Virus record (IMG/VR): IMGVR_UViG_3300025009_000312
Span: 1 to 30,606 of that record
Direction: 5' to 3' (one strand)
Source of the DNA: a virus
DNA: 30,606 nt
Numbering within the stretch: the first letter of the stretch is position 1; each line of letters starts with the position of its first letter. Below, in pieces: positions 13,493 through 30,606 of the stretch. Position numbers and translations under genes: made by a program. The notes under the pieces are model-generated. The model saw nothing but the letters and a program-made list of their open reading frames with translations. It made no database searches and was not told the DNA's origin.

Positions 13493-14684
13493 TCTCAGTC
13501 CCCAGGGGTACAAGGTTTGACGGAACGAGCAACGTATCTCCACCCTCAACCGGGTCGTATCCCTGCGCCGTCCGTTCTTCGTTAATTGTCGTCAACCCCT
13601 GAATGCGAATGGCCGCAACCCTAGCCACACGCTCTTCGTCGTTTGATACCGTGCTGTCGTGCTTAATGATAAGTTTGGGATCGAACTTACGCGCCAAGTC
13701 CTGCGTGAGCCGTTCGTCCATCAATTCAAGGATCGGTTCTACCACATTCCGGCTGAACGTGTAATCATTCGCCTCAGCATTGGCTCGGTTCACATCCTCA
13801 ACCAATCCCAGCTTAGATGCCGGAACACCGAATGCCGCGAGAATATCATCTCTCGTTGATTTGTTTGTCGCCAGCCAGTCTAGTTCTTTCGGGTTAATGC
13901 CAATGCGCTCAATCGACAACCCACCCTCTAGGATGGGAGTCTTACCCGATCCGCCCGGGCCGCCATACTCACGGTTCCAATCGGCCTTCATCTTGTTGCG
14001 CGTGTCATCCCTCAACTCCGTGTTGGTCTTTAGCGCATACGGGGGGATGGCAAAGTTCTTGTAAAATTGACGCTGATACTCATGCTGAAATTCGTCAATG
14101 TCTGAAGATGCGGCGGCGGCCATGAGGACGGATTGACCATAGTAGAATGAGGACGGATTGGGGTGCTTGAAGTGAATAACCTCAGATGGGTCGAAGGGAA
14201 TGACCTCTTCCCCGTTCTGCAACTCATACCGGGCAATCTCACCCGATTTGGTGGGGACTATCTTCATCCTATCTGCTGGCAGTGACCACAACTCGGCGGG
14301 AATCTTCAATCCACTCATGGGTGCGTACCAGTATGCGTCCCCCGTCAAGTCCTGATGGGCTGATGTCACGTAAAGCATTTCCCGTTTGGTCGCTACGGGG
14401 TTGACCTCATCCAGTAGGATAACGAGCGGGTGGTCCGGGCGAACCTCAACAAGATCGTCCGGCCCCTTCTTGACATATACCCTGAACCTCGCACCTGCGA
14501 TAGCCTTTGCGCGGATAGACACACATGAATACACCCACGACTTGTATGATGCGAGCATCGCAGACTTATCGCCACGTCTATCAATTAACCCAGTCTGTTG
14601 CTCATGCCCACGGACTCCGTAGATGTTCGGGATGCCCTTGCGAAATACGTCTAGGGCGAGAGATGCGCGTTGAATGAAGTTCAT
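13464..14684 (-). CDS. Portal protein, HK97 family
   Basis: 406 aa. Family landmarks in order: SWVYSCVSIRAKAIAGARFRVY near residues 48-69, DHPLVILLDEVNP, QDLTGDAYWY, PSEVIHFKHPNP, YGQSVLMAAAA, the GPGGSGKTPILEGG loop, ATNKSTRDDILAAFGVPASKLG, and NVVEPILELMDERL. This covers the wing, stem and crown parts of the dodecameric portal through which DNA is packaged. Length is normal for the HK97 type. The start overlaps the terminase stop by 4 bases. Confidence 0.95.
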   Translation of the reverse strand: MNFIQRASLALDVFRKGIPNIYGVRGHEQQTGLIDRRGDKSAMLASYKSWVYSCVSIRAKAIAGARFRVYVKKGPDDLVEVRPDHPLVILLDEVNPVATKREMLYVTSAHQDLTGDAYWYAPMSGLKIPAELWSLPADRMKIVPTKSGEIARYELQNGEEVIPFDPSEVIHFKHPNPSSFYYGQSVLMAAAASSDIDEFQHEYQRQFYKNFAIPPYALKTNTELRDDTRNKMKADWNREYGGPGGSGKTPILEGGLSIERIGINPKELDWLATNKSTRDDILAAFGVPASKLGLVEDVNRANAEANDYTFSRNVVEPILELMDERLTQDLARKFDPKLIIKHDSTVSNDEERVARVAAIRIQGLTTINEERTAQGYDPVEGGDTLLVPSNLVPLGTENVGNSEPVV

Positions 14685-15934
14685 AGGAAAGTCAATCTCG
14701 GTTCGTTCGGGCCAGTTACCATCAATTCAGTCAATGCCCACACCAGCGCGTCCATGCGGTTCGGTGAAGGGTCGCCCGGCATCCACGTACACATTTCTTC
14801 TTCCATCTCCGGGAATTGTCCCACATGATGTACCCGGCCCTGTTCATACAGTGCGGCCACGGGTTCGGCGCGGGTCAATTTGCCACGACTTGCGTTGACC
14901 TTCTTATACGAGACAGTCGGATCAACCATTCTGACGGTCAACTCTACCATGTCCCCGCCGTTATTAGATTCTGCAACGATCCGGTCGGCCTTGTGCTGGT
15001 GGTATGCAACAACCGAACGCCTAGCCCATCCGTCTGGGGATGCCCGTAATGAATCGTCCGCCAAGACATAGCCGTGCCCGTTTGCACCAACTCCGGCAAC
15101 GACAATACCCGCCTCGTCCGAGGTGGCGGTAGAAGTCGCAGAGGGGTCAATCGCAACAATGACGCGCACAAGTTCGGGGGCTTTGTCAACTCTGAGGGAT
15201 TCGATACGTTCACGCTTCCAGAGACTACCTTCAACGTCTGTGACTTCCTCGGCCATGATCTCTTGCCTCACAGCAAGGGCCGTCATATCTTTGCTGATAT
15301 CGTCTAACGCCGTTCGGGATAGATGCGGATTGTCGTATGAGGTGAAGTGAAACGCCGCCCAACGTCCTGATGGGTCTTTCAATGCCTTCTGGTATAACTT
15401 CTCAGCATGACGGGGATCATCGGCCTTAGACGACGACCTTGAGCGAATGGAGGGCGGTGTGAACACGAACACGGCATCACCATCATTGTCCAGGAGCATC
15501 GGCGCGCCTACAATACGCCAGGCATCCTCGTTCATCAACTGCCATTCGTCCAGTATCAGTAGGTCCGCGTAGTCTCCGCGCAAGGTATCAGCGTTCCATG
15601 CCGTCTTTGCCCTGATGCGTTGCTCCTTGCCGGCTACTTCAATAACGTGCTCGGTCTCGTTCTTCTTCAGGAGTCCATACTTGATCGGCTCTGCAAATGC
15701 CCTCGTAATCTCTGACCAGAATCTCTGAATCTGGTCACTTGTCGGTGTGGCGTAGAGAACCCTTTTACCCGCTAAGAACGCTTGACCCGCTAACACTGAA
15801 ACACCTACCGTCTTACCGCCACGCCTTCCGGCCTTGATGATCTTGCGCTTGGCCGTTGAATCAATGAACGCCCGTTGCTTCGGGTGTGGGTTCGGAAAAA
15901 TTACGTCAATCTCTGGGTTCGTTGCGGTCGTCAT
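14681..15934 (-). CDS. Terminase large subunit
   Basis: 417 aa. Packaging ATPase plus nuclease. N-terminal ATPase: HPKQRAFID adenine-binding region at 17-25, Walker A GRRGGKT at 36-42, Walker B LLILDE at 125-130 followed by WQ, and FTPPS at 159-163 as the coupling motif. C-terminal RNase H-like nuclease: first acidic residue in VAIDPSA (Asp 263), second in VAESNNGGD (Glu 322), third in PNRMDALVWAL (Asp 395). All key residues are present. It overlaps the small subunit gene by 29 bases and the portal gene by 4. Which packaging strategy is used cannot be read from this alone. Confidence 0.96.
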   Translation of the reverse strand: MTTATNPEIDVIFPNPHPKQRAFIDSTAKRKIIKAGRRGGKTVGVSVLAGQAFLAGKRVLYATPTSDQIQRFWSEITRAFAEPIKYGLLKKNETEHVIEVAGKEQRIRAKTAWNADTLRGDYADLLILDEWQLMNEDAWRIVGAPMLLDNDGDAVFVFTPPSIRSRSSSKADDPRHAEKLYQKALKDPSGRWAAFHFTSYDNPHLSRTALDDISKDMTALAVRQEIMAEEVTDVEGSLWKRERIESLRVDKAPELVRVIVAIDPSATSTATSDEAGIVVAGVGANGHGYVLADDSLRASPDGWARRSVVAYHQHKADRIVAESNNGGDMVELTVRMVDPTVSYKKVNASRGKLTRAEPVAALYEQGRVHHVGQFPEMEEEMCTWMPGDPSPNRMDALVWALTELMVTGPNEPRLTFL

Positions 15935-16175
15935 ACCTTACGCGGAGTGTGAATTCGCCCTTGCCCTCAATGGTCTGAGGCTTGCGGGAGAACACATACG
16001 GAAGAATCCGGTCCAACATTCGCTCACGGTCGGATTGCTTCTCAGAGTTTAGCCCCTCGGCAATAATCTCCATGCAACGGTCGCCGAACTTCGCGGGCAT
16101 GTCGCCGCGCTTCCAGGGAACACCCGTCCCCTTTGGTCGCCCTGCTCCCGGTCGTTTGCCGCCATTGCCAGCCAT
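15906..16175 (-). CDS. Terminase small subunit-like protein
   Basis: 89 aa. N-terminal GGKRPGAGRPKG is the glycine/arginine-rich, AT-hook-like start typical of small terminase subunits of this kind. It is followed by KRGDMPAKFGDRCMEIIAEGL and a helix SDRERMLDRILPYVF. It would recognise the packaging site and recruit the large subunit. This is the first gene after the promoter at 16252-16280, leaving a leader of about 70 bases. It is shorter than most small terminases (about 140-180 aa), with only one clear helix-rich unit. Confidence 0.85.
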   Translation of the reverse strand: MAGNGGKRPGAGRPKGTGVPWKRGDMPAKFGDRCMEIIAEGLNSEKQSDRERMLDRILPYVFSRKPQTIEGKGEFTLRVRYDDRNEPRD

Positions 16176-16251
16176 TGAAAATGATATCAGTTCGCCGCGT
16201 TATTTGCGCGTTATCGGTAGGTGTAATAACCCCCCCTCTGGGGACAGTGCC
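16176..16251 (-). other. 5' leader of the virion operon
   Basis: About 70 transcribed bases before the small terminase gene. It contains a C/G-rich CCCCAGAGGGGGG segment that can form a short hairpin right after the expected start of transcription. I see no ORF and no strong Shine-Dalgarno before the ATG at 16175. Confidence 0.45.
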
Positions 16252-16280
16252 AAGATACGGACTTGCGCCGGTAGTGTCAA
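16252..16280 (-). promoter_or_regulatory. Sigma70-type promoter for the packaging/virion operon
   Basis: On the minus strand -35 TTGACA (16275-16280) is separated by exactly 17 bases from -10 TATCTT (16252-16257). The 22-base block around the -10 is repeated with two mismatches at the right end of the window. Transcription would begin near 16245 and reach the small terminase ATG at 16175. Confidence 0.85.
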
Positions 16281-16415
16281 GTAAAATTTACCGGGTTATT
16301 CTTACCGAATGGGCCTACGATCTACGCAATACGGGATGTGTGCACAAGAGAAATATAGCGCAGGGCTGACGCGGCAACAGCAGAACTCTAGCATCCCCTC
16401 ATATCGGCAGTCACG
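16281..16415. other. Non-coding stretch between virion promoter and plus-strand terminator
   Basis: No convincing ORF on either strand. A plus-strand transcript here could fold with GGGATG (16333-16338) paired to CATCCC (16392-16397) before the terminator hairpin. I searched for a plus-strand promoter by eye and found no good TTGACA/TATAAT pair. Confidence 0.4.
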
Positions 16416-16441
16416 GCCCCTCTTCGGAGGGGCTTTTTGTT
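16416..16441 (+). terminator. Intrinsic terminator, plus-strand orientation
   Basis: A perfect 7-bp GC stem, GCCCCTC (16416-16422) and GAGGGGC (16427-16433), closes a TTCG tetraloop and is followed by TTTTTGTTT. The T-tract follows only on the plus strand; on the minus strand an A-tract precedes the hairpin. The upstream arm also overlaps a second possible stem, ACGGCCC 16413-16419 with GGGCCGT 16444-16450. No plus-strand gene is recognised in the window. Confidence 0.8.
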
Positions 16442-16503
16442 TCGGGCCGTCAGCAAGGCTAGAATGAAAGGGGGAGGAACGCCCCGGCCCCGCATTCTGG
16501 CCC

Positions 16504-16677
16504 TTAGTTCAAACTGATTCCACGCCACACCGCGAAGCGGACTAGAACCAAACCGTCAATGACCCTAGCGTCAGAGGGAATGCCACGAAGGACAGAACGC
16601 AATATGTTCTGCATTGTTCCGTCAAATCCAATCGGTTTACCGTTCGGCTCTAGTCCAAGCCATGAGATTGTAGTCAT
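16504..16677 (-). CDS. Possible 57-aa protein downstream of the tRNAs
   Basis: ATG at 16677 to TAA at 16504. The product starts MTTISWLGLEPNGKPIGF and has a hydrophobic VIDGLVLVRFAVW stretch. It overlaps by ATGA the end of a 13-codon mini-frame that starts next to the tRNA-Thr 3' end. There is no Shine-Dalgarno, and no family is recognised. The fully open frame and coupling-like overlap favour a gene, but it may be chance. Confidence 0.42.
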   Translation of the reverse strand: MTTISWLGLEPNGKPIGFDGTMQNILRSVLRGIPSDARVIDGLVLVRFAVWRGISLN

Positions 16678-16717
16678 GTCAACTGACGGCGCATTATCTG
16701 GTCTAGTGGTTTCATTG

Positions 16718-16784
16718 AGCCGTCACTTGGACTCGAACCAAGTCGATACGCTTACAAGGCGTTACGCTTCGCCTGATTGACGGC
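16718..16784 (-). tRNA. tRNA-Thr(UGU)-like with shortened D-arm
   Basis: Acceptor GCCGTCA (16784-16778) pairs perfectly with TGACGGC (16725-16719). The T-arm CTTGG TTCGAGT CCAAG is canonical. The anticodon loop CTTGTAA places UGU (codon ACA) after U33. Only 12 bases stand where a D-arm of 16-17 is normal, there is no GG pair in a proper D-loop, and positions 8-9 read AT instead of the usual TA. CCA is not encoded. It may be a minimal functional tRNA or a decaying one. Confidence 0.62.
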
Positions 16785-16803
16785 ACTCCGTTTAGGGCGG
16801 ATG

Positions 16804-16888
16804 CGGAGGGCGTAGGATTCGAACCCACAAACCCCTTGCGGGGAACTGGTACTCAAGACCAGCGCAATCGCCGTTCTGCCAGCCCTCC
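16804..16888 (-). tRNA. tRNA-Ser(UGA)
   Basis: A class II tRNA of 85 bases. Acceptor GGAGGGC pairs with GCCCTCC; anticodon stem CTGGT/ACCAG holds loop CTTGAGT with anticodon UGA (codon UCA). The long variable arm CCCC-GCAA-GGGG is characteristic of serine tRNA. T-arm GTGGG TTCGAAT CCTAC has one wobble pair. The discriminator is G73 as required for Ser; CCA is not encoded. Confidence 0.92.
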
Positions 16889-16907
16889 AATGCGACACTC
16901 TTGCTTG

Positions 16908-16979
16908 TCGGAACAACAGGATTTGAACCTACAACCAATGGCTTATAAGACCACTGCGCTACCGTTGCGCTACACGCCA
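16908..16979 (-). tRNA. tRNA-Ile(UAU)
   Basis: 72 bases. D-arm GCGC-AACGGTA-GCGC, anticodon loop CTTATAA with anticodon UAU (codon AUA), T-loop TTCAAAT, discriminator A. The acceptor stem TGGCGTG/TGTTCCG is weak: one C-U mismatch and four G-U wobbles. Bacteria normally read AUA with a CAU tRNA carrying lysidine, so a UAU tRNA is a distinct solution. Confidence 0.75.
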
Positions 16980-16984
16980 AAGTG

Positions 16985-17056
16985 AGGCGGTTAGGCTGGC
17001 GGCTTACCTGACTCCATTGCTGGCTCTATGGCTCCCCAGCCTCATTGAATCCGCCT
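16985..17056 (-). ncRNA. Structured leader segment of the tRNA transcript
   Basis: Just upstream of tRNA-Ile, two nested stems can form: AGGCGG/CCGCCT (17056-17051 with 16990-16985) and AGGCTGG/CCAGCCT (17042-17036 with 16999-16993). The inner arm can alternatively pair with CCAGC at 17023-17019. It has tRNA-like size (72 bases) but no T-loop or anticodon loop. A processing leader is possible. Confidence 0.4.
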
Positions 17057-17070
17057 TAATCTGACGGCTT

Positions 17071-17099
17071 AAGATACAAATTTGCATCCTACAATGCAA
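17071..17099 (-). promoter_or_regulatory. Promoter of the tRNA cluster
   Basis: -35 TTGCAT (17094-17099), 17-base spacer, -10 TATCTT (17071-17076) on the minus strand. The -10 and the G before it match the other two TATCTT promoters in the window. It lies in the gap after the last early gene (stop at 17123), so the tRNAs have their own transcription start. Confidence 0.72.
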
Positions 17100-17122
17100 G
17101 GCGTGAGCTTCCTCCTATACCC

Positions 17123-17572
17123 TCATTGTTTCCTCTTTAGATACTCCATGAATCCGGGGAGGGTGGGGGGATTGCGCGGCGCATAGTAACCAACGTCTTT
17201 GAGTGGGTAGAAGTATTCCACTCCCTCGTTAATGCGAACGCTGTCCAATTCTCCGCCCGTAATCCACGTATGTCTCACCGTATCTCGACTGCACTCGGCG
17301 ACATATGCGTCCCATACTGAGACCTGAGTGCGTGCGTGAAGCGCAATGAATGCCTCCAATAGTGTTCGACCGTACACGGTATCGGGGCCGACAATGAATC
17401 GGATAATCATGTCACCCGTACTTGATTCGTCGAATGTGTCGAAGTATATGTTCCCCGCTTTTTGGTTCGCCAACCGTTGCATCTTCCACAGGTCGCGGAG
17501 ATCGGCTTGGTTCTGCCCCACCCCCACCTGCGTTGCAAGGGCTACAGCTAGGATGATGAGTAGGTGTCTCAT
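17123..17572 (-). CDS. Signal-peptide protein at the end of the early operon
   Basis: 149 aa. Signal peptide MRHLLIILAVALATQ, cleavage likely at GVG before QNQA. The mature 130 residues contain a helical start (DLRDLWKMQRLANQ), a VGPDTVYGRTLLEAFIALHAR segment whose DTVYxRxLLE part recalls ADTVYARSVLE in the 318-aa protein at 7882-8838, and a single cysteine. It is the last gene before the tRNA promoter, 4 bases after the upstream gene's stop. It is the fifth secreted-type protein in the window and the only one outside the virion operon. Function unknown. Confidence 0.82.
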   Translation of the reverse strand: MRHLLIILAVALATQVGVGQNQADLRDLWKMQRLANQKAGNIYFDTFDESSTGDMIIRFIVGPDTVYGRTLLEAFIALHARTQVSVWDAYVAECSRDTVRHTWITGGELDSVRINEGVEYFYPLKDVGYYAPRNPPTLPGFMEYLKRKQ

Positions 17573-17576
17573 GTGG

Positions 17577-17762
17577 TCAGCCCTTCGCTTTCTTGCACGA
17601 TTTTTCTAGTCCGTTGAGAAAATGTCCGGCGGCGTGTTTCCACTCTTCCAATTTACATCTGGTGCAATTCCTGACCCCATAGAATCGTGGTGTCCCGGCT
17701 GGCGCAAGAATTTCAGTTCTCCACTTGGTCATTCGATGGCTTGGATGTTTCTTCTGTCTCAT
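17577..17762 (-). CDS. Small basic protein with CxxC motif
   Basis: 61 aa from ATG at 17762, overlapping the upstream stop as ATGA. Pattern TKWRTEILAPAGTPRFYGV followed by RNCTRCKLEE, GHFLNGLEKSCKKA gives C-x2-C plus a later Cys and His, fitting a small treble-clef or zinc-ribbon fold common in phage mini-proteins. A longer frame from 17906 overlaps the neighbour almost fully and is not preferred. Function unknown. Confidence 0.75.
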   Translation of the reverse strand: MRQKKHPSHRMTKWRTEILAPAGTPRFYGVRNCTRCKLEEWKHAAGHFLNGLEKSCKKAKG

Positions 17763-18124
17763 GTGGATTCCTTTACGTGGATGCGCTTGCCGCAGGAACA
17801 TTGACCGGGAGATTGCATTGCCGCCGACATTGCCATATTTGTTGGCCTTCTCTCTCCACAGGTGGTTTCCCAGTATGAATCGGACCAAGTGCCTTTTCGT
17901 GTCCACTCACACGTCTCCTCCTCCCGCTCCTTGCGGTCCTGACGAATGGCGGCAGAGATGGCTTCCCGTATCCACTTCTTCATGTGTTCTCGCCCATCCA
18001 GAATCTCCTGCCAACCGAAACCGTCGTTACCGATGAGTTTAATTTCGATTCTGTCGCCATCTAGAGATTCAATGAGCCATGCAATCGCATTCCTCACCCC
18101 CTCCGACAACTCTGGCTGGATCAT
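17759..18124 (-). CDS. Helical protein with C-terminal zinc-ribbon
   Basis: 121 aa from ATG at 18124 (MIQPELSEGVRNAIAWL), chosen because it forms an ATGA overlap with the upstream stop. Residues 1-70 are helical and charged. The C-terminal 50 residues have CEWTRKG, YWETTCG and CSCGKRI, a layout seen in phage proteins ending in a one-ribbon zinc domain ('CxW...WxTxCG...C..CGK'). Function unknown. Confidence 0.8.
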   Translation of the reverse strand: MIQPELSEGVRNAIAWLIESLDGDRIEIKLIGNDGFGWQEILDGREHMKKWIREAISAAIRQDRKEREEETCEWTRKGTWSDSYWETTCGERRPTNMAMSAAMQSPGQCSCGKRIHVKEST

Positions 18125-18342
18125 GGCTTGGCCTTCCTCATGGTTTCGATAAACCTTTGGACGATACCCTTTCGCGGGTGGAGGAGTATGCGGGTCACTT
18201 TGCGATAGGTCTCGTTCAACTGCTTTCCACACTTCTCACATACATCCCTCACGTCGGGGTGATTCGCCTCGGCGGACAGAGTCATCAATTCCCACTCCGC
18301 CTTAACGGTAGTTCCACAAACATCACACTTGAGGTCTCTCAT
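18121..18342 (-). CDS. Zinc-ribbon protein
   Basis: 73 aa. Two knuckles, CDVCGTTVKA near residue 6 and CEKCGKQLNE near 35, separated by 26 residues, followed by a basic helix (RKVTRILLHPRKGIVQRF). ATGA overlaps occur at both ends, so it is embedded in the early polycistron. The basic tail suggests nucleic acid binding, but that is inference. Confidence 0.83.
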   Translation of the reverse strand: MRDLKCDVCGTTVKAEWELMTLSAEANHPDVRDVCEKCGKQLNETYRKVTRILLHPRKGIVQRFIETMRKAKP

Positions 18343-18608
18343 TTCTTCCCCTTTCGTGGAGGGATGCGCTTGACGTAGTATTGCGTGTCAACCGACAACT
18401 CTTCGCCTGCCCCGACCTTCCGATACCTCGGTGCGGGACGGTTGAGGATGCGCTCGGCTTCCGTGGTATCCATTGTGGCGTAGCACTCCTCGATATTGCA
18501 GACAACATCAACCCCACCCCCTGTATTCCGATCCCACGTTGTGTTTATGCTCCACTTGTGCGGCCCCTTGTGCTTGTGTGTCTTGCTCATGGGTTTAGAA
18601 TGCGTCAT
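18339..18608 (-). CDS. Hypothetical small protein
   Basis: 89 aa from ATG at 18608, preceded by AAGGGG; another ATG at 18590 would avoid the 14-base overlap with the upstream gene but lacks a ribosome site. The N-terminus is rich in His and Lys (MSKTHKHKGPHKW), followed by CNIEECYATMD and a basic end with YVKRIPPRKGKK. The stop overlaps the next ATG. No family recognised. Confidence 0.72.
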   Translation of the reverse strand: MTHSKPMSKTHKHKGPHKWSINTTWDRNTGGGVDVVCNIEECYATMDTTEAERILNRPAPRYRKVGAGEELSVDTQYYVKRIPPRKGKK

Positions 18609-24221: not shown

Positions 24222-24568
24222 ATCCGCATCTCCGCCTTTCGGTAACTCAGGGCCGATTGCACCGCCTTGAATCTCAAATGCAGGGCTTTCAGCAATGACT
24301 CGGCTTGCTTCACGGCGATCCGTTCTTCGACCGTCAGGGCTTGAACCGCCGCGCCTATCCGGGCCTCACTTGCGCCCGGTTCCGCCGCCATGACTTGATC
24401 CCGGTATTCGCGTTCCTTGCGAAGCATGACGGCCTCAAGGCCCATCGTTAGTTCGCTCACCGAGGATATGGCCCCGCTAATCTCCAGCAGGTATTCCGTA
24501 AGCCCCGCCGGGTCATTGGCATTCGCCTGCCTCTTGGCTATCTCTGCGTATTGGGATAGGTCGGTCAT
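24218..24568 (-). CDS. Helical early protein
   Basis: 116 aa from ATG at 24568 (MTDLSQYAEIAKRQANAN), an ATGA overlap with the upstream gene; a longer frame reaching 24709 lies within that gene. Predominantly helical with LEISGAISSVSELTMGLEAV and a long helix to the C-terminus (AESLLKALHLRFKAVQSAL). Possibly a coiled-coil structural partner of the nuclease downstream. No family recognised. Confidence 0.76.
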   Translation of the reverse strand: MTDLSQYAEIAKRQANANDPAGLTEYLLEISGAISSVSELTMGLEAVMLRKEREYRDQVMAAEPGASEARIGAAVQALTVEERIAVKQAESLLKALHLRFKAVQSALSYRKAEMRI

Positions 24569-25164
24569 GGGGCTACTGTGACACCGAGTGATTCGCGTAA
24601 CTGTGCAACCCACCGATTGCGTGAGTCCACTCGCTCTTGTTCTTTTTTGTGTTCCTCGGTGTGGTAGGTAATGTCCTTCAATGCTTTTGCCTGTTCGTCC
24701 CGCAACCACTCTTCCGCGCTTTTCTTACGTGGGGCTGGAGCATCGAATCCGCAATCAAACCGGATCGACTCGACAAGTTGCGACTCCATGAATTGCTTGT
24801 ATTCCACGTGGTCGGGAGACGGCGGGATATATGCCCGAACCTCCGTAAGCATGATCTCGTACCGCTTCCGTTGCTCGTTCTTCGCGGTCGCGTACCTGGT
24901 ATGGCTTGCGAGTGCGTCTTGGTACTCTAGTTTGGCTTCCGCCTCGGCTTGTTTGAACGTCAGCGATTCCACAAACTTCAACCGGGTCCGTGCGCGGTCG
25001 AGGCATTCGATGTGATAGGTTGACGGCTCAAATTTCTCTGGAATGGGCTTGTCTGGTGGGTCGTCTCGCATTTCCACTAACGCCCCAAACGCCCTAGCAC
25101 AACCAAGCGCGTATTCCTGAAAGGTCATACCCTTTTCAATTCCCGCAGTATATCCGGTTGGCAT
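24565..25164 (-). CDS. Conserved phage protein of unknown function
   Basis: 199 aa. MPTGYTAGIEKGMTFQEYA continues with LGCARAFGALVEMRDDPPD and FEPSTYH. This N-terminus is a family I recognise from many tailed phages, always of unknown function. The middle is a long charged coiled coil (FKQAEAEAKLEYQDALASH and further), the C-terminal 70 residues are acidic/basic. AAGGAGAG lies before the ATG, and a structured RNA segment precedes it. Confidence 0.85.
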   Translation of the reverse strand: MPTGYTAGIEKGMTFQEYALGCARAFGALVEMRDDPPDKPIPEKFEPSTYHIECLDRARTRLKFVESLTFKQAEAEAKLEYQDALASHTRYATAKNEQRKRYEIMLTEVRAYIPPSPDHVEYKQFMESQLVESIRFDCGFDAPAPRKKSAEEWLRDEQAKALKDITYHTEEHKKEQERVDSRNRWVAQLRESLGVTVAP

Positions 25165-25194
25165 CGTCTCTCTCCTTGTGTGATGAACGGGGGA

Positions 25195-25264
25195 CGGGAA
25201 CAGTCGCCACTCCTATTACGAGTAGCCAAGCGGCCTACGATTAGGCACGCACAGGTGGTTCCCG
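25195..25264 (-). ncRNA. Candidate structured RNA with two hairpins inside a closing stem
   Basis: In the intergenic gap before the 24565-25164 gene, CGGGAAC (25264-25258) pairs with GTTCCCG (25201-25195). Inside it are GCCTA-ATCG-TAGGC (25246-25233) and GCTACTC-GTAATAG-GAGTGGC (25226-25206, one G-U). This makes a three-way junction of 70 bases whose last arm ends 31 bases before the start codon. No known class matches. Confidence 0.5.
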
Positions 25265-25290
25265 CCCCTTCCGTTCGCTAATGGGCTAGA

Positions 25291-26770: not shown

Positions 26771-27001
26771 TCAATACTTGCGGTTCCTAATCGCACAATA
26801 CAATCGGCGGAAGAACCCAACTCGTTTTGGGGGAATCGGAACAAACCTGTCTTGCACCACTTCTGGATTCCTCTGAAGCCCCATCTTCAACGCAAGCCAC
26901 GACACATCGTATTTAAGCTCCTGTATGCTCTTTGATTGATTGTTGATGTTGCTATGAATAACCGACAAGTCTTGTTGGGTAACATGTCTTGTGTCTTTCA
27001 T
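26771..27001 (-). CDS. Small helical protein
   Basis: 76 aa, AGGAG 9 bases upstream. N-terminal helical segment (TQQDLSVIHSNINNQSKSI, ELKYDVSWLALK) and a basic C-terminus with VGFFRRLYCAIRNRKY. This may be a short coiled coil plus an amphipathic tail. Function unknown. Confidence 0.73.
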   Translation of the reverse strand: MKDTRHVTQQDLSVIHSNINNQSKSIQELKYDVSWLALKMGLQRNPEVVQDRFVPIPPKRVGFFRRLYCAIRNRKY

Positions 27002-27011
27002 TTCCCTTCTC

Positions 27012-27173
27012 CTAGCTCAATGACGGCGTTGAGGGTATTCCATGATACGGCTCCCAATCATCCCTATCCATTGCAGGGTTCACGGATACGTGAACTATGG
27101 CCTTTGCCAGTTCGATCAGTTCTTCCATCTTCTGACAATGGGGGTTAGACTTGGATAGTTCGAGGTTCGTCAT
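27012..27173 (-). CDS. 53-aa hypothetical protein
   Basis: ATG at 27173 with GGGAGGAAGT before it, stop TAG at 27012. MTNLELSKSNPHCQKMEEL continues as a helix, then an acidic, proline-rich end (DRDDWEPYHGIP). The start overlaps the upstream stop as ATGA. No family recognised. Confidence 0.68.
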   Translation of the reverse strand: MTNLELSKSNPHCQKMEELIELAKAIVHVSVNPAMDRDDWEPYHGIPSTPSLS

Positions 27174-27340
27174 ACTTCCTCCCTTATCAGCGTCACCCTG
27201 TCAACCTCTTTCCCTGTCCGGCTGACGAAGTATGCCGCGAGTGTGTAGTGCCATTCCGGTCGGTCCTTCGGCAAGTCCATGCAAAGCCTTACCGTGTGAG
27301 TCCCGCCGTCTGTCTCAATGTAGGTCACGACGTAGGTCAT
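27170..27340 (-). CDS. 56-aa hypothetical protein
   Basis: ATG at 27340, TGA at 27170; ATGA overlaps at both ends. YVVTYIETDGGTHTVRLCM is a beta hairpin, followed by LPKDRPEWHYTLAAYFV and RVTLIREEV. A compact beta fold is likely. Function unknown. Confidence 0.7.
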   Translation of the reverse strand: MTYVVTYIETDGGTHTVRLCMDLPKDRPEWHYTLAAYFVSRTGKEVDRVTLIREEV

Positions 27341-27558
27341 GACTTCGCCGGGTACTTCATTTTCAACGCCGACTCGTAATACATTGCGGTGTCAATGTCG
27401 TGTTTGGCAATGTCAAGATACGCCTGAGCTGTATTGGGGTTGCCATCATCCATGTTCCGCCTTGCCTTTTCCTTGAACTGCTCAGCCCGATCCCTGAGCA
27501 TCAACACAGCATCTTCGGCGGCGTTCTTGAGGATAGTTTCCTGCGCGTCGTAAGTCAT
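27337..27558 (-). CDS. Helical hypothetical protein
   Basis: 73 aa. Two amphipathic helices: EDAVLMLRDRAEQFKEKARRN and DIAKHDIDTAMYYESALKMKY. It begins 3 bases after the repeat-protein gene stop and overlaps the next gene by 4 bases. Function unknown. Confidence 0.75.
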   Translation of the reverse strand: MTYDAQETILKNAAEDAVLMLRDRAEQFKEKARRNMDDGNPNTAQAYLDIAKHDIDTAMYYESALKMKYPAKS

Positions 27559-27561
27559 GGC

Positions 27562-28164
27562 TTACCTCAAGTGTTCGACACGGTTGGCGGGATTATGAAA
27601 TTGTGCAATCCAAAGTGAGGCGCATCCGTCTTGGTAGGTCTTCAAGAGTTGGGCGCATCCGTCTTGGTAGGTCTTCCAGAGTTGGGCGCGTCCGTCTTCG
27701 TAGGTCTTCAAGAGTTGGGCGCGTCCGTCTTGGCAGGTCTTCAAGAGTTGGGCGCATCCGTCTTCGTAGGTCTTCCAGAGTTGGGCGCGTCCGTCTTCGT
27801 AGGTATTCCGCGATTTTCCAGTCAACAGCGACACAAGCGCATTGTCAACGCCGCACTTCTTTATGTGGCGCATCAATGCCGTGGCAGACCCTGCAACGCG
27901 GTCATACTCAACCTGCAACCGCTTTATGTCGGCTTGAGTTGCTTCCCCCCCGGCCATGACGAACTTGCCGTAGCCCTTGGAGAAATCAGACTCAATACTC
28001 ACGACCCGTTGGCCCTTTGCGGTCTCAGTCCATCCGAGACGCTTGAGTTTACGCTCCAGCTTTTGGGTAAGTTCCGAATGCGAACCGATCCCGGCGGCGA
28101 TGTGCCTTACGGTCTTGCGCCCGACCTTCCATTCGAATTGGGTGAGTATCACTCCTTGGCACAT
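27562..28164 (-). CDS. First gene of the early operon, with six 11-residue C-terminal repeats
   Basis: 200 aa; GGAGAG precedes the ATG at 28164. The N-terminal 118 residues are mixed alpha/beta and charged: VGRKTVRHIAAGIGSHSEL, LERKLKRLGWTETAKG, VVSIESDFSKGYGKFVM and a helical stretch to GKS. From residue 120 to 185 an 11-residue unit, K-T-Y-(E/Q)-D-G-(R/C)-A-Q-L-(L/W), occurs six times without interruption. At the DNA level this is a 33-bp tandem repeat. The hendecad period suggests a helical or solenoid array. Three of the six units have Cys at the R/C position and unit 3 has an additional Cys in place of Tyr. Function unknown; copy number might vary. Confidence 0.85.
   Translation of the reverse strand: MCQGVILTQFEWKVGRKTVRHIAAGIGSHSELTQKLERKLKRLGWTETAKGQRVVSIESDFSKGYGKFVMAGGEATQADIKRLQVEYDRVAGSATALMRHIKKCGVDNALVSLLTGKSRNTYEDGRAQLWKTYEDGCAQLLKTCQDGRAQLLKTYEDGRAQLWKTYQDGCAQLLKTYQDGCASLWIAQFHNPANRVEHLR
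27610..27807. repeat. 33-bp tandem repeat, six copies
   Basis: Copies begin (by the shared tccgtctt motif on the plus strand) at 27625, 27658, 27691, 27724, 27757 and 27790, exactly 33 bases apart. They differ only at a few sites (cgca or cgcg before the motif, ttg or ttc, ttcaag or ttccag). Translated on the minus strand they give the 11-residue units of the gene at 27562-28164. Confidence 0.95.
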
Positions 28165-28186
28165 ATCGACTCTCCTTTAACCGACA

Positions 28187-28281
28187 ACAGCCCCGCAGTT
28201 CGTCCTACTACGCGCATACGCATTAGGACTGGCCGGGGGCTGTCTGTTCGGTTTCGATAGGTTTTCATTTTGCGTATGCGC
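28187..28281 (-). ncRNA. Structured 5' leader of the early operon
   Basis: In the transcript from the promoter at 28297-28325, ACAGCCCC (28243-28236) pairs with GGGGCTGT (28194-28187), enclosing GTCCTA (28229-28224) paired with TAGGAC (28207-28202). The apical loop holds 11 bases (28212-28222) exactly complementary to 28271-28281, upstream of the whole hairpin. A pseudoknot or switch between two folds is possible. The first gene's ribosome site begins about 13 bases after the stem. Confidence 0.6.
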
Positions 28282-28296
28282 TCGATAACGTGCCCA

Positions 28297-28325
28297 ATGA
28301 TAACGGGCAGGGAATCAAATGTCAA
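28297..28325 (-). promoter_or_regulatory. Strong promoter of the early operon
   Basis: -35 TTGACA (28320-28325), 17-base spacer, -10 TATCAT (28297-28302) on the minus strand. A frame of 72 codons that begins upstream at 28367 would cross the promoter and is not regarded as coding. Expected start of transcription is about 28290, leaving a leader of about 125 bases. Confidence 0.83.
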
Positions 28326-28386
28326 GGGCCGAAGATTAAAAATGCGTGAACGTTCGTTAATGTCCATACTCGGTTAGAATGACCGA

Positions 28387-28950
28387 CTACAGCCTACCGA
28401 GCGGCGCGAATCTGTCCTTGATTGAAGATATGCGACCCTTGAACGCAACAATTATCTTCTGCTCCCGTTTCGGGAACTTGCGAATGTGGAGCGTCTTCTT
28501 TGCCTGTGCCAACCGCGTAAACTCCGCCTCCAGGTAAACGATCTTGTTATACACGAACAGCCCGTTCTCCTTGAAGAATAGTTCTGTTTCCGACTCTGAG
28601 CAGTAATACGCACCGGACTTGTCCAGACTGTCTCCGGTCATTACGACAAAGAAACATCCATCATTTAGATGTGCAATCGCCCGCCTGTAGCCAGCAAATA
28701 GAACGTCCCGGAATTTCTCGTACGTATCAAGCGAGTTAATCTCTCCGGGCGGCGGATTGCCGTCGTAATCAACGTATCTCTCAACGCGATAATACGGCGG
28801 GCAAGAAAATACAAGATCAAACATCCCATCGGGTTCGTATGTTGATGAATCGCCCAGAATCCACGACACACCCGGAAACTCGGCGCATATCTTATTGTTA
28901 GCATCGCATTGGTTCTGCCGAATCTCACTCGCCACATACTCGAAACGCAT
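28387..28950 (-). pseudogene. DNA methyltransferase, N-terminally truncated
   Basis: 187 aa from ATG at 28950. Starting at its first residues it matches the post-motif-I part of phage DNA methyltransferases: FEYVASEIRQNQCDAN, LGDSS, FDLVFSCPPYYRVERYV (catalytic S-P-P-Y motif IV at 49-54), CFFVVMTGDSLDKSGAYY and a C-terminal FPKREQKIIVAFKG. The DPFxGxG AdoMet-binding motif I that normally precedes 'GxxYVGxEIR' is missing, and an in-frame TAG lies 12 bases upstream of the ATG. The product would not bind AdoMet normally, so I treat this as a remnant. Confidence 0.8.
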
Positions 28951-29296
28951 CGCAGACGTCTAGCGTATTGTCCCAATCGTGGCACGGGTCGCCCGCAGTC
29001 CCAATGCGATACCATGTTGCGGGATGTTCGCTGACACGCCGGAAAATGTCAGGCCAATTTCGCGCCGTTATTTTTCTAGATACGCTTTTGGAGAACTCGA
29101 CACCGTACCTTTTAACGCTTTTCAACGCATAGCATTCGCCGTAACATCCACCGTCCGGGTACGCGCGTAATCCCGCCGCACATCCCTTGACAGTGTCTAT
29201 GTCTAGAACCCCTTTTGCGTTTTCCTCAACCGTGAGTATTGGTCTATATTGTTTGCTCTTTCCCTGTAGGCCAAACAGCCCCGGTTGCAATTTCAC
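28925..29296 (-). pseudogene. gp88-like cysteine-motif protein, C-terminally truncated
   Basis: 123 aa from GTG at 29296. GVLDIDTVKGCAAG, PDGGCYGECYALKSVKRYG (Cys 39, 51, 55) and WYRIGTAGDPCHDWDNTLDV correspond to the N-terminal part of a phage family often next to DNA methyltransferase genes; full members continue with a 'K-TPVIITKHW' strand and a further cysteine-rich region. Here the frame stops at CDAFRVCGE, 26 bases into the methyltransferase remnant. The abrupt end in a conserved segment indicates loss of about half the protein. Function of the family is not established; a metal or iron-sulfur site is plausible. Confidence 0.65.
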
Positions 29297-29366
29297 ACAC
29301 CCTACCCAATGATTGTGGTTTGTCTTGTCTTATCTTGTGTCTTTGTTTTTGATTCTGCTTCTAATC

Positions 29367-29474
29367 TTAAAGCCGGACTCCTTTGCTATACCCCGCTTTC
29401 CGCAGAACAAATGCAGAAAGCGCGATACAGAGGAATGAGCCTACAAGAAGCGAGATCGCTTTACGCTTCGACAT
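29367..29474 (-). CDS. Possible 35-aa membrane peptide
   Basis: ATG at 29474, TAA at 29367. MSKRKAISLLVGSFLCIAL continues with SAFVLRKAGYSKG: one transmembrane helix with positive ends. No good ribosome site, but a hairpin (29480-29502) sits just before it. It lies in a 378-base gap between the nucleotidyltransferase and the gp88-like remnant. Coding status uncertain. Confidence 0.45.
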   Translation of the reverse strand: MSKRKAISLLVGSFLCIALSAFVLRKAGYSKGVRL

Positions 29475-29552
29475 TCTTAGCCGTCATTTTTCGGTTGACG
29501 GCCTATCGGTCGGTGTTATCGCCTACCCGCCCGGCGCGGAGCAAAGGAGTCC
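29375..29552. repeat. 13-bp inverted repeat
   Basis: GGACTCCTTTGCT at 29375-29387 and its exact reverse complement at 29540-29552, 152 bases between the inner ends. The enclosed segment contains the 35-aa frame. Possibly the boundary of an inserted or rearranged block; no transposase or target duplication seen. Confidence 0.55.
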
Positions 29553-29674
29553 TAGAGAAACGAACGCGCTGTCGAAACGATTACCCCGGCTCTAGCCCAG
29601 CGGCACAACGGGAGGCGTTGGCTTGGCGGCTCAGTTTCGGGGGACTACTTTTGTGTGTCTACTTCTGTGTGTGG
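29475..29674. other. Non-coding part of the gap after the nucleotidyltransferase gene
   Basis: No supported gene. It contains a 7-bp hairpin GCCGTCA/TGACGGC (29480-29486 with 29496-29502) and one arm of a 13-bp inverted repeat whose other arm is at 29375-29387. A plus-strand frame across the region has hydrophobic ends but no ribosome site and is not accepted as a gene. Confidence 0.4.
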
Positions 29675-30448
29675 TTACCGCTTTGCGTAGTGGGTTGACG
29701 TAATCTCAACGGTAAGCGCGTTCACAAGTTCGGCATCGACCGATTCTGGCAACTTGGATTCGTTTTTTGCCGACTCCATTTCTTTGAACAGGTCTGATGC
29801 TACACGCTTTACCTTGTCAATCGACCACGCCCCCAACTTAATTTGCTTCAACTCTTCCGCGTCTGGACGCTCTACAACAAGTTTGCCAGTTCGCATAAAC
29901 TCGACACCCTGCCGTAATAAGCGGACAAGGTGCTGTGCGTTTTTCGTGTCGTAACCAAACTTATCTACCAGCCCCTTGCGCTTTTGTCCCATGTAACCAT
30001 TGTAAGCCATATTCTCCATTTTGTGCAACTGCCCGTAGGCATACCCGCAGAAAGAATGGTAGATTTTCTTGCAGGAAAAGATGTCTCGGCTCACTACCAA
30101 CTTTCGCCACAAGTCCGTATTGCGTATGTAGAACTTTTCGGGTGTCCATAGGGCGTTGAGAACATTGGGATTCGCCTTTTCGACAAGCCGGATAAATTTC
30201 CGCAGATCATAAACCAGCACGTCCCACTCGCCTTCTTTGCACTCAAATTGATCGAACGTCTTGATGCCGAAAAAATAGTCTCTCGGCGGCAGACATACAC
30301 CAAAGATGTCGGTATCGTCAATGCTTCCGGGATTCGAGTTCGGGATGTGCGTACCGTGCGAATGACTCCCCCGATACATCAGCACAAGTGAGTTGTCCCA
30401 CATGTGGAACGGGCCACGGTGAACGAGTATGTCGTTAAGTTTTCTCAT
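29675..30448 (-). CDS. RlaP-like nucleotidyltransferase
   Basis: 257 aa from ATG at 30448; a TTG further upstream lies inside a hairpin and is not preferred. A polymerase-beta-type nucleotidyltransferase: YRGSHSHGTHIP at 26-37 is the G-S-x-x-x-G motif, and IDDTDIFGVCLPP at 43-55 holds the D-x-D metal pair. It is followed by DVLVYDLRKFIRLVEKANPN, the third strand and helical region. The C-terminal half is helical (NAQHLVRLLRQGVEF). Phages often carry this family; the acceptor, nucleic acid or protein, is not known. It is the first gene after the promoter at the right end. Confidence 0.88.
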   Translation of the reverse strand: MRKLNDILVHRGPFHMWDNSLVLMYRGSHSHGTHIPNSNPGSIDDTDIFGVCLPPRDYFFGIKTFDQFECKEGEWDVLVYDLRKFIRLVEKANPNVLNALWTPEKFYIRNTDLWRKLVVSRDIFSCKKIYHSFCGYAYGQLHKMENMAYNGYMGQKRKGLVDKFGYDTKNAQHLVRLLRQGVEFMRTGKLVVERPDAEELKQIKLGAWSIDKVKRVASDLFKEMESAKNESKLPESVDAELVNALTVEITSTHYAKR

Positions 30449-30460
30449 GGCTATAAAATA

Positions 30461-30533
30461 GATTGACCCCAATCCACCCAAAACTCTTGAGAAGTTCGCC
30501 GCCAGCGACGGCAAGGGTGAATTAGGGTCAATC
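30461..30533 (-). promoter_or_regulatory. 19-bp leader hairpin before the nucleotidyltransferase
   Basis: On the minus-strand RNA, GATTGACCCTAATTCACCC (30533-30515) pairs with GGGTGGATTGGGGTCAATC (30479-30461): 17 Watson-Crick and 2 G-U pairs, loop of 35 bases. The stem ends 12 bases before the start codon, and no Shine-Dalgarno lies in those 12 bases, so it may control translation or RNA stability. Confidence 0.7.
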
Positions 30534-30589
30534 CTAATCTCGTCTTGTGATGCTGGCCGCGCTTCTCAATTCGCGGGTGGAACTGTGCT

Positions 30590-30606
30590 AAGATACGCAC
30601 TTGCGC
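30590..30606 (-). promoter_or_regulatory. Promoter cut by the window end
   Basis: -10 TATCTT at 30590-30595 with the same surrounding bases as the virion promoter (GCGCAAGTxCGTATCTTxGCAC). The -35 would be at about 30613-30618, outside the window. It would drive the nucleotidyltransferase gene with a leader of about 140 bases. Confidence 0.6.

What the first reader, a model, noticed from the sequence alone, without database searches (positions are those of the whole stretch)
28187..28325. Early operon leader with mutually exclusive RNA folds
The leader contains an 8-bp stem with an inner 6-bp stem. The apical loop carries 11 bases exactly complementary to a segment upstream (28271-28281). Both pairings cannot form simply together, except as a pseudoknot. 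The hairpin lies shortly before the first gene's ribosome site, so it may be a switch controlling the whole early operon.
Basis: partly seen in the sequence, partly recalled or inferred. Interest (0 to 1): 0.62.

Follow-up and report, generated by a model that had tools for sequence, protein, structure and literature searches.

The report
Structured phage leader, switch unproven
In an uncultured phage, the start of one messenger RNA carries an unusually stable hairpin and a second stretch that can briefly pair with its tip; it is probably a genuine structured leader, but nothing yet shows that it switches genes on and off.

Summary
On the minus strand of a 30.6-kb viral contig, an 11/12 sigma-70-type promoter (28325-28297) precedes a leader of about 126 nt and the ribosome site of a 200-aa orphan ORF. 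The 8-bp stem, the 6-bp stem and the 11-nt complementarity are all present. The hairpin is longer than described (28179-28253) and is the most stable 75-nt stretch sampled on that strand. The leader folds better than 1000 of 1000 shuffles, and none of 1000 shuffles carries an 11-nt inverted repeat.

Folding growing prefixes predicts that the 11-bp helix forms first and is displaced once the closing arm is made. The finished hairpin wins by about 10-13 kcal/mol. The ribosome site is about equally open in both states and there is no U-tract, so a classical masking switch or attenuator is not supported. No homologue was found, so covariation could not be tested. DNA operators (two copies of GCGYATRCGC near the promoter) remain a serious rival.

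A second leader at the contig's right end, behind a similar promoter, has a better-balanced pair of exclusive folds: a 20-bp helix with a U-rich tail against a long hairpin. This is the most interesting lead.

The parts
28297..28325 (-). predicted sigma-70-type promoter: TTGACA (28325-28320), 17-nt spacer, TATCAT (28302-28297); predicted start of transcription about 28290
   Evidence: 11 of 12 consensus bases; 0.2 such sites expected per shuffled contig; its -10 and GGCAC downstream resemble two other promoter-like sites at 30595 and 16257
28271..28281 (-). 5' arm GCGCATACGCA, complementary to the hairpin tip; alternatively operator copy 1
   Evidence: exact 11-nt inverted repeat
28179..28253 (-). 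long imperfect hairpin that ends directly before the Shine-Dalgarno sequence
   Evidence: -42.5 kcal/mol, lowest 75-nt minus-strand stretch sampled; leader z -4.7
28236..28243 (-). 5' side of the 8-bp stem (partner 28187-28194)
28187..28194 (-). 3' side of the 8-bp stem
28224..28229 (-). 5' side of the inner 6-bp stem (partner 28202-28207)
28202..28207 (-). 3' side of the inner 6-bp stem
28212..28222 (-). apical segment TGCGTATGCGC, pairs either within the hairpin tip or with 28271-28281; alternatively operator copy 2
28170..28178 (-). Shine-Dalgarno sequence AAAGGAGAG
   Evidence: sequence
27562..28164 (-). first ORF behind the leader, 200 aa, with tandem 11-residue repeats in its C-terminal part; no relative found

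Best explanation
The element is the 5' leader of a phage mRNA that starts at about 28290 on the minus strand. Its working part is the long hairpin 28179-28253, which forms once its 3' arm is made and leaves the Shine-Dalgarno sequence in a single-stranded gap before the AUG. [quoted passage not shown] On the nascent RNA the 11-nt arm pairs first with the future hairpin tip and is then displaced. This makes a short-lived folding intermediate or, at most, a brief delay, and not a stable two-state switch. Shown in silico: promoter match, hairpin, competition, order of folding, largely open ribosome site. Inferred: transcription start, stabilising or processing role, any effect on expression.
For: Promoter 11/12 directly upstream. 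Fold z -4.7, 0 of 1000 shuffles as stable. Prefix folding: 11-bp pairing probability 0.999 for RNA ending at 28212 to 28194, 0.001 at 28190, 0 beyond; the same for assumed starts 28293 to 28279, but with start 28276 the competition is lost. SD-to-AUG opening cost 4.04 kcal/mol, eighth lowest of 25 minus-strand genes computed (range 2.22-13.06). A comparable long stem precedes the SD AAGGAGAG of ORF 24565-25164 (z -2.89).
Against: No homologue, so no covariation. Stable hairpins are not rare in such places: 3 of 23 relatives checked, out of 80 fetched, have a 75-nt fold of -40 kcal/mol or lower within 320 nt downstream of the related methyltransferase gene. In the finished leader the start codon is mostly paired with flanking segments (unpaired 0.02-0.33), which argues against a fully open ribosome site. 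The host is unknown, so promoter type and RNases are assumed.
Confidence: 0.45

Rival explanations
1. Co-transcriptional regulatory switch: the 11-bp helix and the hairpin are two functional states whose balance is set by polymerase pausing, a protein or an ion, and they control translation of the downstream genes.
For: Two strong exclusive pairings in a leader; clear order of formation; the arm freed by the hairpin can pair with the start codon (about 0.6 probability); a second leader in the contig also has exclusive folds.
Against: The hairpin wins by 9.7 kcal/mol in minimum energy and about 13.5 in ensemble energy. Opening the ribosome site costs slightly more, not less, in the 11-bp state. 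No terminator-like site on the minus strand of 27000-30606. No known riboswitch or leader family at E up to 1.
Confidence: 0.2
2. DNA operators: the 11-nt repeat is two copies of a quasi-palindromic protein-binding site (GCGYATRCGC), one just downstream of the promoter, the other 60 bp further on; a phage repressor binds both and the RNA pairing is a by-product.
For: GCGYATRCGC occurs exactly twice in the contig, both here, centres 60 bp apart; one copy lies about 10 nt past the predicted start; such placing is common for repressors (general knowledge).
Against: Does not explain the rest of the hairpin, whose stems lie outside the repeat. No exact copy of the site at the other two promoter-like sites. 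No repressor gene was recognised among the 30 proteins scanned against PHROGs, though most have no assigned function.
Confidence: 0.22
3. The hairpin is real but the 11-nt complementarity is a chance match without function.
For: About 0.43 such repeats are expected by chance in a contig of this composition, and one is found.
Against: It is the only one within 100 nt in the contig, and it falls in the leader; 0 of 1000 shuffles of the leader hold one.
Confidence: 0.13

Closest known systems
Metastable leaders such as the phage MS2 5' UTR and the type I toxin mRNAs hok and aapA3 (PMC6733600, passages read)
   Same: Sequential, mutually exclusive folds during transcription, a transient one replaced by a more stable one.
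   Different: In aapA3 the transient hairpins mask the Shine-Dalgarno sequence, and MS2 is an RNA phage. Here neither state clearly masks it, and no function is shown.
HK022 put RNA, an antitermination leader of a lambdoid phage (PMC9378689, passages read)
   Same: Structured RNA made just downstream of an early phage promoter.
   Different: put is about 70 nt with two stem-loops and acts on RNA polymerase. The leader here is one long hairpin plus a free 5' arm.
RNase III-processed hairpins before genes in T7-type phage mRNAs (recalled, no source read)
   Same: Long imperfect hairpin a few nucleotides before a ribosome site.
   Different: No processing evidence; host and its RNases unknown.
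Transcription attenuators with terminator and antiterminator (recalled)
   Same: Two exclusive pairings in a 5' leader.
   Different: The 8-bp stem here is followed by UGUCGGUUAAAGGAG, not a U-tract. The right-end leader fits this design better.

Membership tests
Known RNA families (Rfam 15) | score above a family's threshold | tested here: not met
   window at gathering threshold: only two tRNAs; 28100-30606 at E up to 1: no match
Transcription attenuator | terminator hairpin followed by a U-tract on the transcribed strand | tested here: not met
   no terminator-like site on the minus strand of 27000-30606 (the scan allows loops of 3-8 only)
Transcription attenuator | exclusive alternative pairing | tested here: met
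Translational switch by masking | ribosome site hidden in one state and open in the other | tested here: not met
   opening cost 4.05 against 6.28 kcal/mol
Metastable co-transcriptional leader | transient pairing replaced by a more stable fold as the RNA grows | tested here: met
   equilibrium folding of prefixes only, no kinetics
Metastable co-transcriptional leader | covariation in relatives | not testable with these tools
   no homologous leader found
HK022 put RNA | two adjacent stem-loops in about 70 nt | tested here: not met
   predicted fold is one long hairpin
RNase III processing site | cleavage of the double-stranded stem | not testable with these tools
   needs RNA from infected cells
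Repressor operator pair | repeated symmetric site near the promoter | tested here: met
   two exact copies of GCGYATRCGC
Repressor operator pair | protein binding | not testable with these tools
   no repressor identified

The most novel reading that the evidence does not exclude
This phage controls several gene clusters by bistable leader RNAs placed behind a shared promoter type. The right-end leader is a terminator/antiterminator switch (20-bp helix with a U-rich tail against a long hairpin), and the leader described here is a timing device in which a transient 11-bp helix delays the hairpin that frees the ribosome site.
Probability: 0.1. Interest if true: 0.6.

Novelty: new member of a known kind. 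Interest (0 to 1): 0.3.

Why it matters
If the leaders are regulatory, an uncultured phage would use RNA folding instead of, or beside, protein repressors to set expression of its gene clusters, and two leaders in one contig would allow a direct test. If not, the case is a useful example of a striking repeat that has an ordinary reading (a stable 5' hairpin or a pair of operators).

Tried and rejected
Intrinsic terminator: rejected, no U-tract and no minus-strand terminator-like site. Known riboswitch or leader family: none. Masking switch: not supported. Stable pseudoknot with both helices complete: judged unlikely because only 4 nt (28211-28208) would have to span the 11-bp helix (inference from geometry, not modelled).

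Leader peptide: an in-frame reading from ATG 28268 to the stop at 28149 overlaps the start of the 200-aa ORF, but by eye it has no Shine-Dalgarno sequence and it was not tested further.

Homologues: the 200-aa protein in viral contigs, and its 118-residue N-terminal part in genome contigs (29 pattern matches, 0 relatives), phages, plasmids and 81 of 81 virus records reached through loci: none. Those record searches had no positive control, and the collection scans reach close relatives only. The leader DNA: phages, one 24-nt chance match at E 9; plasmids none; blastn on 81 held loci none at E up to 1; whole records of 41 of the 81 loci, only 14-16-nt matches. A 4.7-kb contig of the same phage (99.8% identical, L087) covers only 13777-18470, so it does not help. 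A relative by one replication-region gene (L002, 75%) does not share this region. The gene next downstream (27337-27558) and the right-end nucleotidyltransferase gave no relatives in viral contigs.

Literature: searches gave two papers used as comparators, of which passages were read.

Full report
What the window is. The window is a whole 30,606-base virus record. Nearly all plausible genes lie on the minus strand, with head and packaging genes in the lower half (terminase, portal, major head protein) and replication or accessory genes in the upper half. The finding lies between a methyltransferase-like ORF (28387-28950) and an orphan 200-aa ORF (27562-28164), and reads on the minus strand.

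Anatomy. A promoter-like site, TTGACA-17-TATCAT, occupies 28325-28297 with 11 of 12 consensus bases; 0.2 such sites are expected per shuffled contig. Its -10 region resembles two others on the same strand: TATCTT at 30595 and at 16257. These two share 24 of 28 bases around them (E about 3e-4). A loose motif made after seeing them, TATCWT with GCAC 0-3 bases on, has 5 hits in the contig against a shuffle mean of 0.36, maximum 3 in 200 shuffles; two of the five (13671 and 21674) were not examined further. Transcription would start near 28290. The leader then holds the arm GCGCATACGCA (28281-28271), the hairpin 28253-28179, the Shine-Dalgarno sequence AAAGGAGAG (28178-28170) and ATG at 28164.

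Is it more than chance? The hairpin folds at -42.5 kcal/mol, and its region gives the lowest value among 2036 minus-strand 75-nt windows sampled every 15 nt. The 126-nt leader folds at -48.7 against -32.7 for shuffles (0 of 1000 as low). The exact 11-nt inverted repeat occurs in 0 of 1000 shuffles of the leader and 19 of 5000 shuffles of the 222-nt intergenic region, but about 0.43 per whole shuffled contig. Ranked by stacking energy, the 11-bp helix is fourth on the minus strand, and 1.85 helices at least as strong are expected per shuffled contig against 4 found. So the hairpin is clearly non-random, whereas the 11-nt match is notable mainly for where it lies.

How the two pairings compete. 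With the finished leader the hairpin state has -51.9 and the forced 11-bp state -42.2 kcal/mol, and the 11-bp pairs have probability 0.0. For shorter RNAs the order is reversed: RNA ending between 28212 and 28194 has the 11-bp helix at 0.999, and by 28190 the hairpin has taken over. This holds for assumed start sites from 28293 to 28279 and fails at 28276. These are equilibrium folds of prefixes, not kinetic simulations. A transient helix that gives way to the hairpin is therefore predicted, but only if transcription starts where assumed.

Does it control translation? Opening the stretch from the Shine-Dalgarno sequence through the start codon costs 4.05 kcal/mol with the hairpin and 6.28 with the 11-bp helix. 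For 25 minus-strand genes the range is 2.22 to 13.06, and this gene is eighth lowest. In the hairpin state the start codon is largely paired, about 0.6 of the time with the freed 5' arm; blocking that arm lowers the cost to 3.01. These differences are modest. No minus-strand terminator-like site is found nearby. A masking switch or attenuator is thus not supported here. A constitutive hairpin that insulates, protects or serves as a processing site is the plainer reading, with the 11-bp helix as an intermediate. That functional role is inferred.

The DNA reading. The two 11-nt arms are also quasi-palindromes. GCGYATRCGC occurs exactly twice in the contig, at 28212-28221 and 28272-28281, with centres 60 bp apart, and the upstream copy lies just past the predicted start. 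A repressor binding both copies would explain the repeat without RNA pairing, though not the rest of the hairpin. Sequence alone cannot decide between these readings.

Relatives. No relative of the 200-aa protein or of the leader was found. The neighbouring methyltransferase has many relatives: 206 matches, of which the best 80 were kept, up to 85% identical. None of the 81 loci held then contains a leader match by blastn at E up to 1, and in the 23 loci examined the ORFs downstream are not relatives of the 200-aa ORF.

Other leaders in the contig. Of 14 intergenic or gene-start regions folded, five have z of -2.5 or lower with 40 shuffles each: the leader region (-5.17), 10704-10500 (-3.99), 25290-25150 (-2.89), 30606-30500 (-2.61) and 29674-29285 (-2.58). 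The right-end leader behind the 30595 site is the most interesting. Its arms 30534-30515 and 30479-30460 form a 20-bp helix (three G-U pairs, the closing pair among them), the strongest on the minus strand; 1 of 200 shuffled contigs has one as strong. It excludes a long hairpin that uses the same GGGUGG, and the two states are nearly balanced (-52.8 for the helix and -55.0 kcal/mol for the hairpin). The helix is followed by UAUUUUAU, as in a terminator with an imperfect U-tract. Against this reading, on growing RNA the long hairpin forms first and the 20-bp helix stays below 0.05. No relative of the gene behind it was found by the one scan made.

Verdict. The switch interpretation is possible but unsupported by accessibility, energies or conservation. 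Interest is modest, raised by the second leader.

Noticed in passing
30440-30606 (-): Leader behind a second promoter-like site (TATCTT at 30595) with two nearly balanced exclusive folds; one is a 20-bp helix (30534-30515/30479-30460) followed by a U-rich stretch, shortly before a nucleotidyltransferase gene (RlaP-like). Resembles a terminator/antiterminator pair.
   Followed up: partly
28387-29296 (-): A 123-aa ORF and the 187-aa methyltransferase ORF match the start of one gene and the last ~185 residues of the next in relatives, where about 1.3 kb lies between them (e.g. L003, L006, L062): a deletion or a misassembly in this contig.
   Followed up: partly
27619-27808: Tandem array of 5.8 copies of a 33-bp unit, in frame in the 200-aa ORF, giving 11-residue repeats such as KTYEDGRAQLW.
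   Followed up: no
16241-16280 and 30579-30606 (-): Two promoter-like regions share 24 of 28 bases; one precedes the packaging and head genes.
   Followed up: partly
16716-16784 (-): A tRNA-like sequence (by eye) next to tRNA-Ile and tRNA-Ser, not called by ARAGORN or at Rfam's threshold.
   Followed up: no
16415-16434 (+): Canonical terminator-like hairpin with a T-run on the plus strand, although nearly all genes are on the minus strand; an antisense or small RNA may end here.
   Followed up: no
29375-29552 (-): Non-coding stretch with a 13-bp exact inverted repeat 152 nt apart enclosing several hairpins; no Rfam match.
   Followed up: no
25165-25290 (-): Long stem (GGGGCGGGAAC/GUUCCCGUCCC) directly before the AAGGAGAG ribosome site of ORF 24565-25164, similar in placing to the leader studied.
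   Followed up: partly
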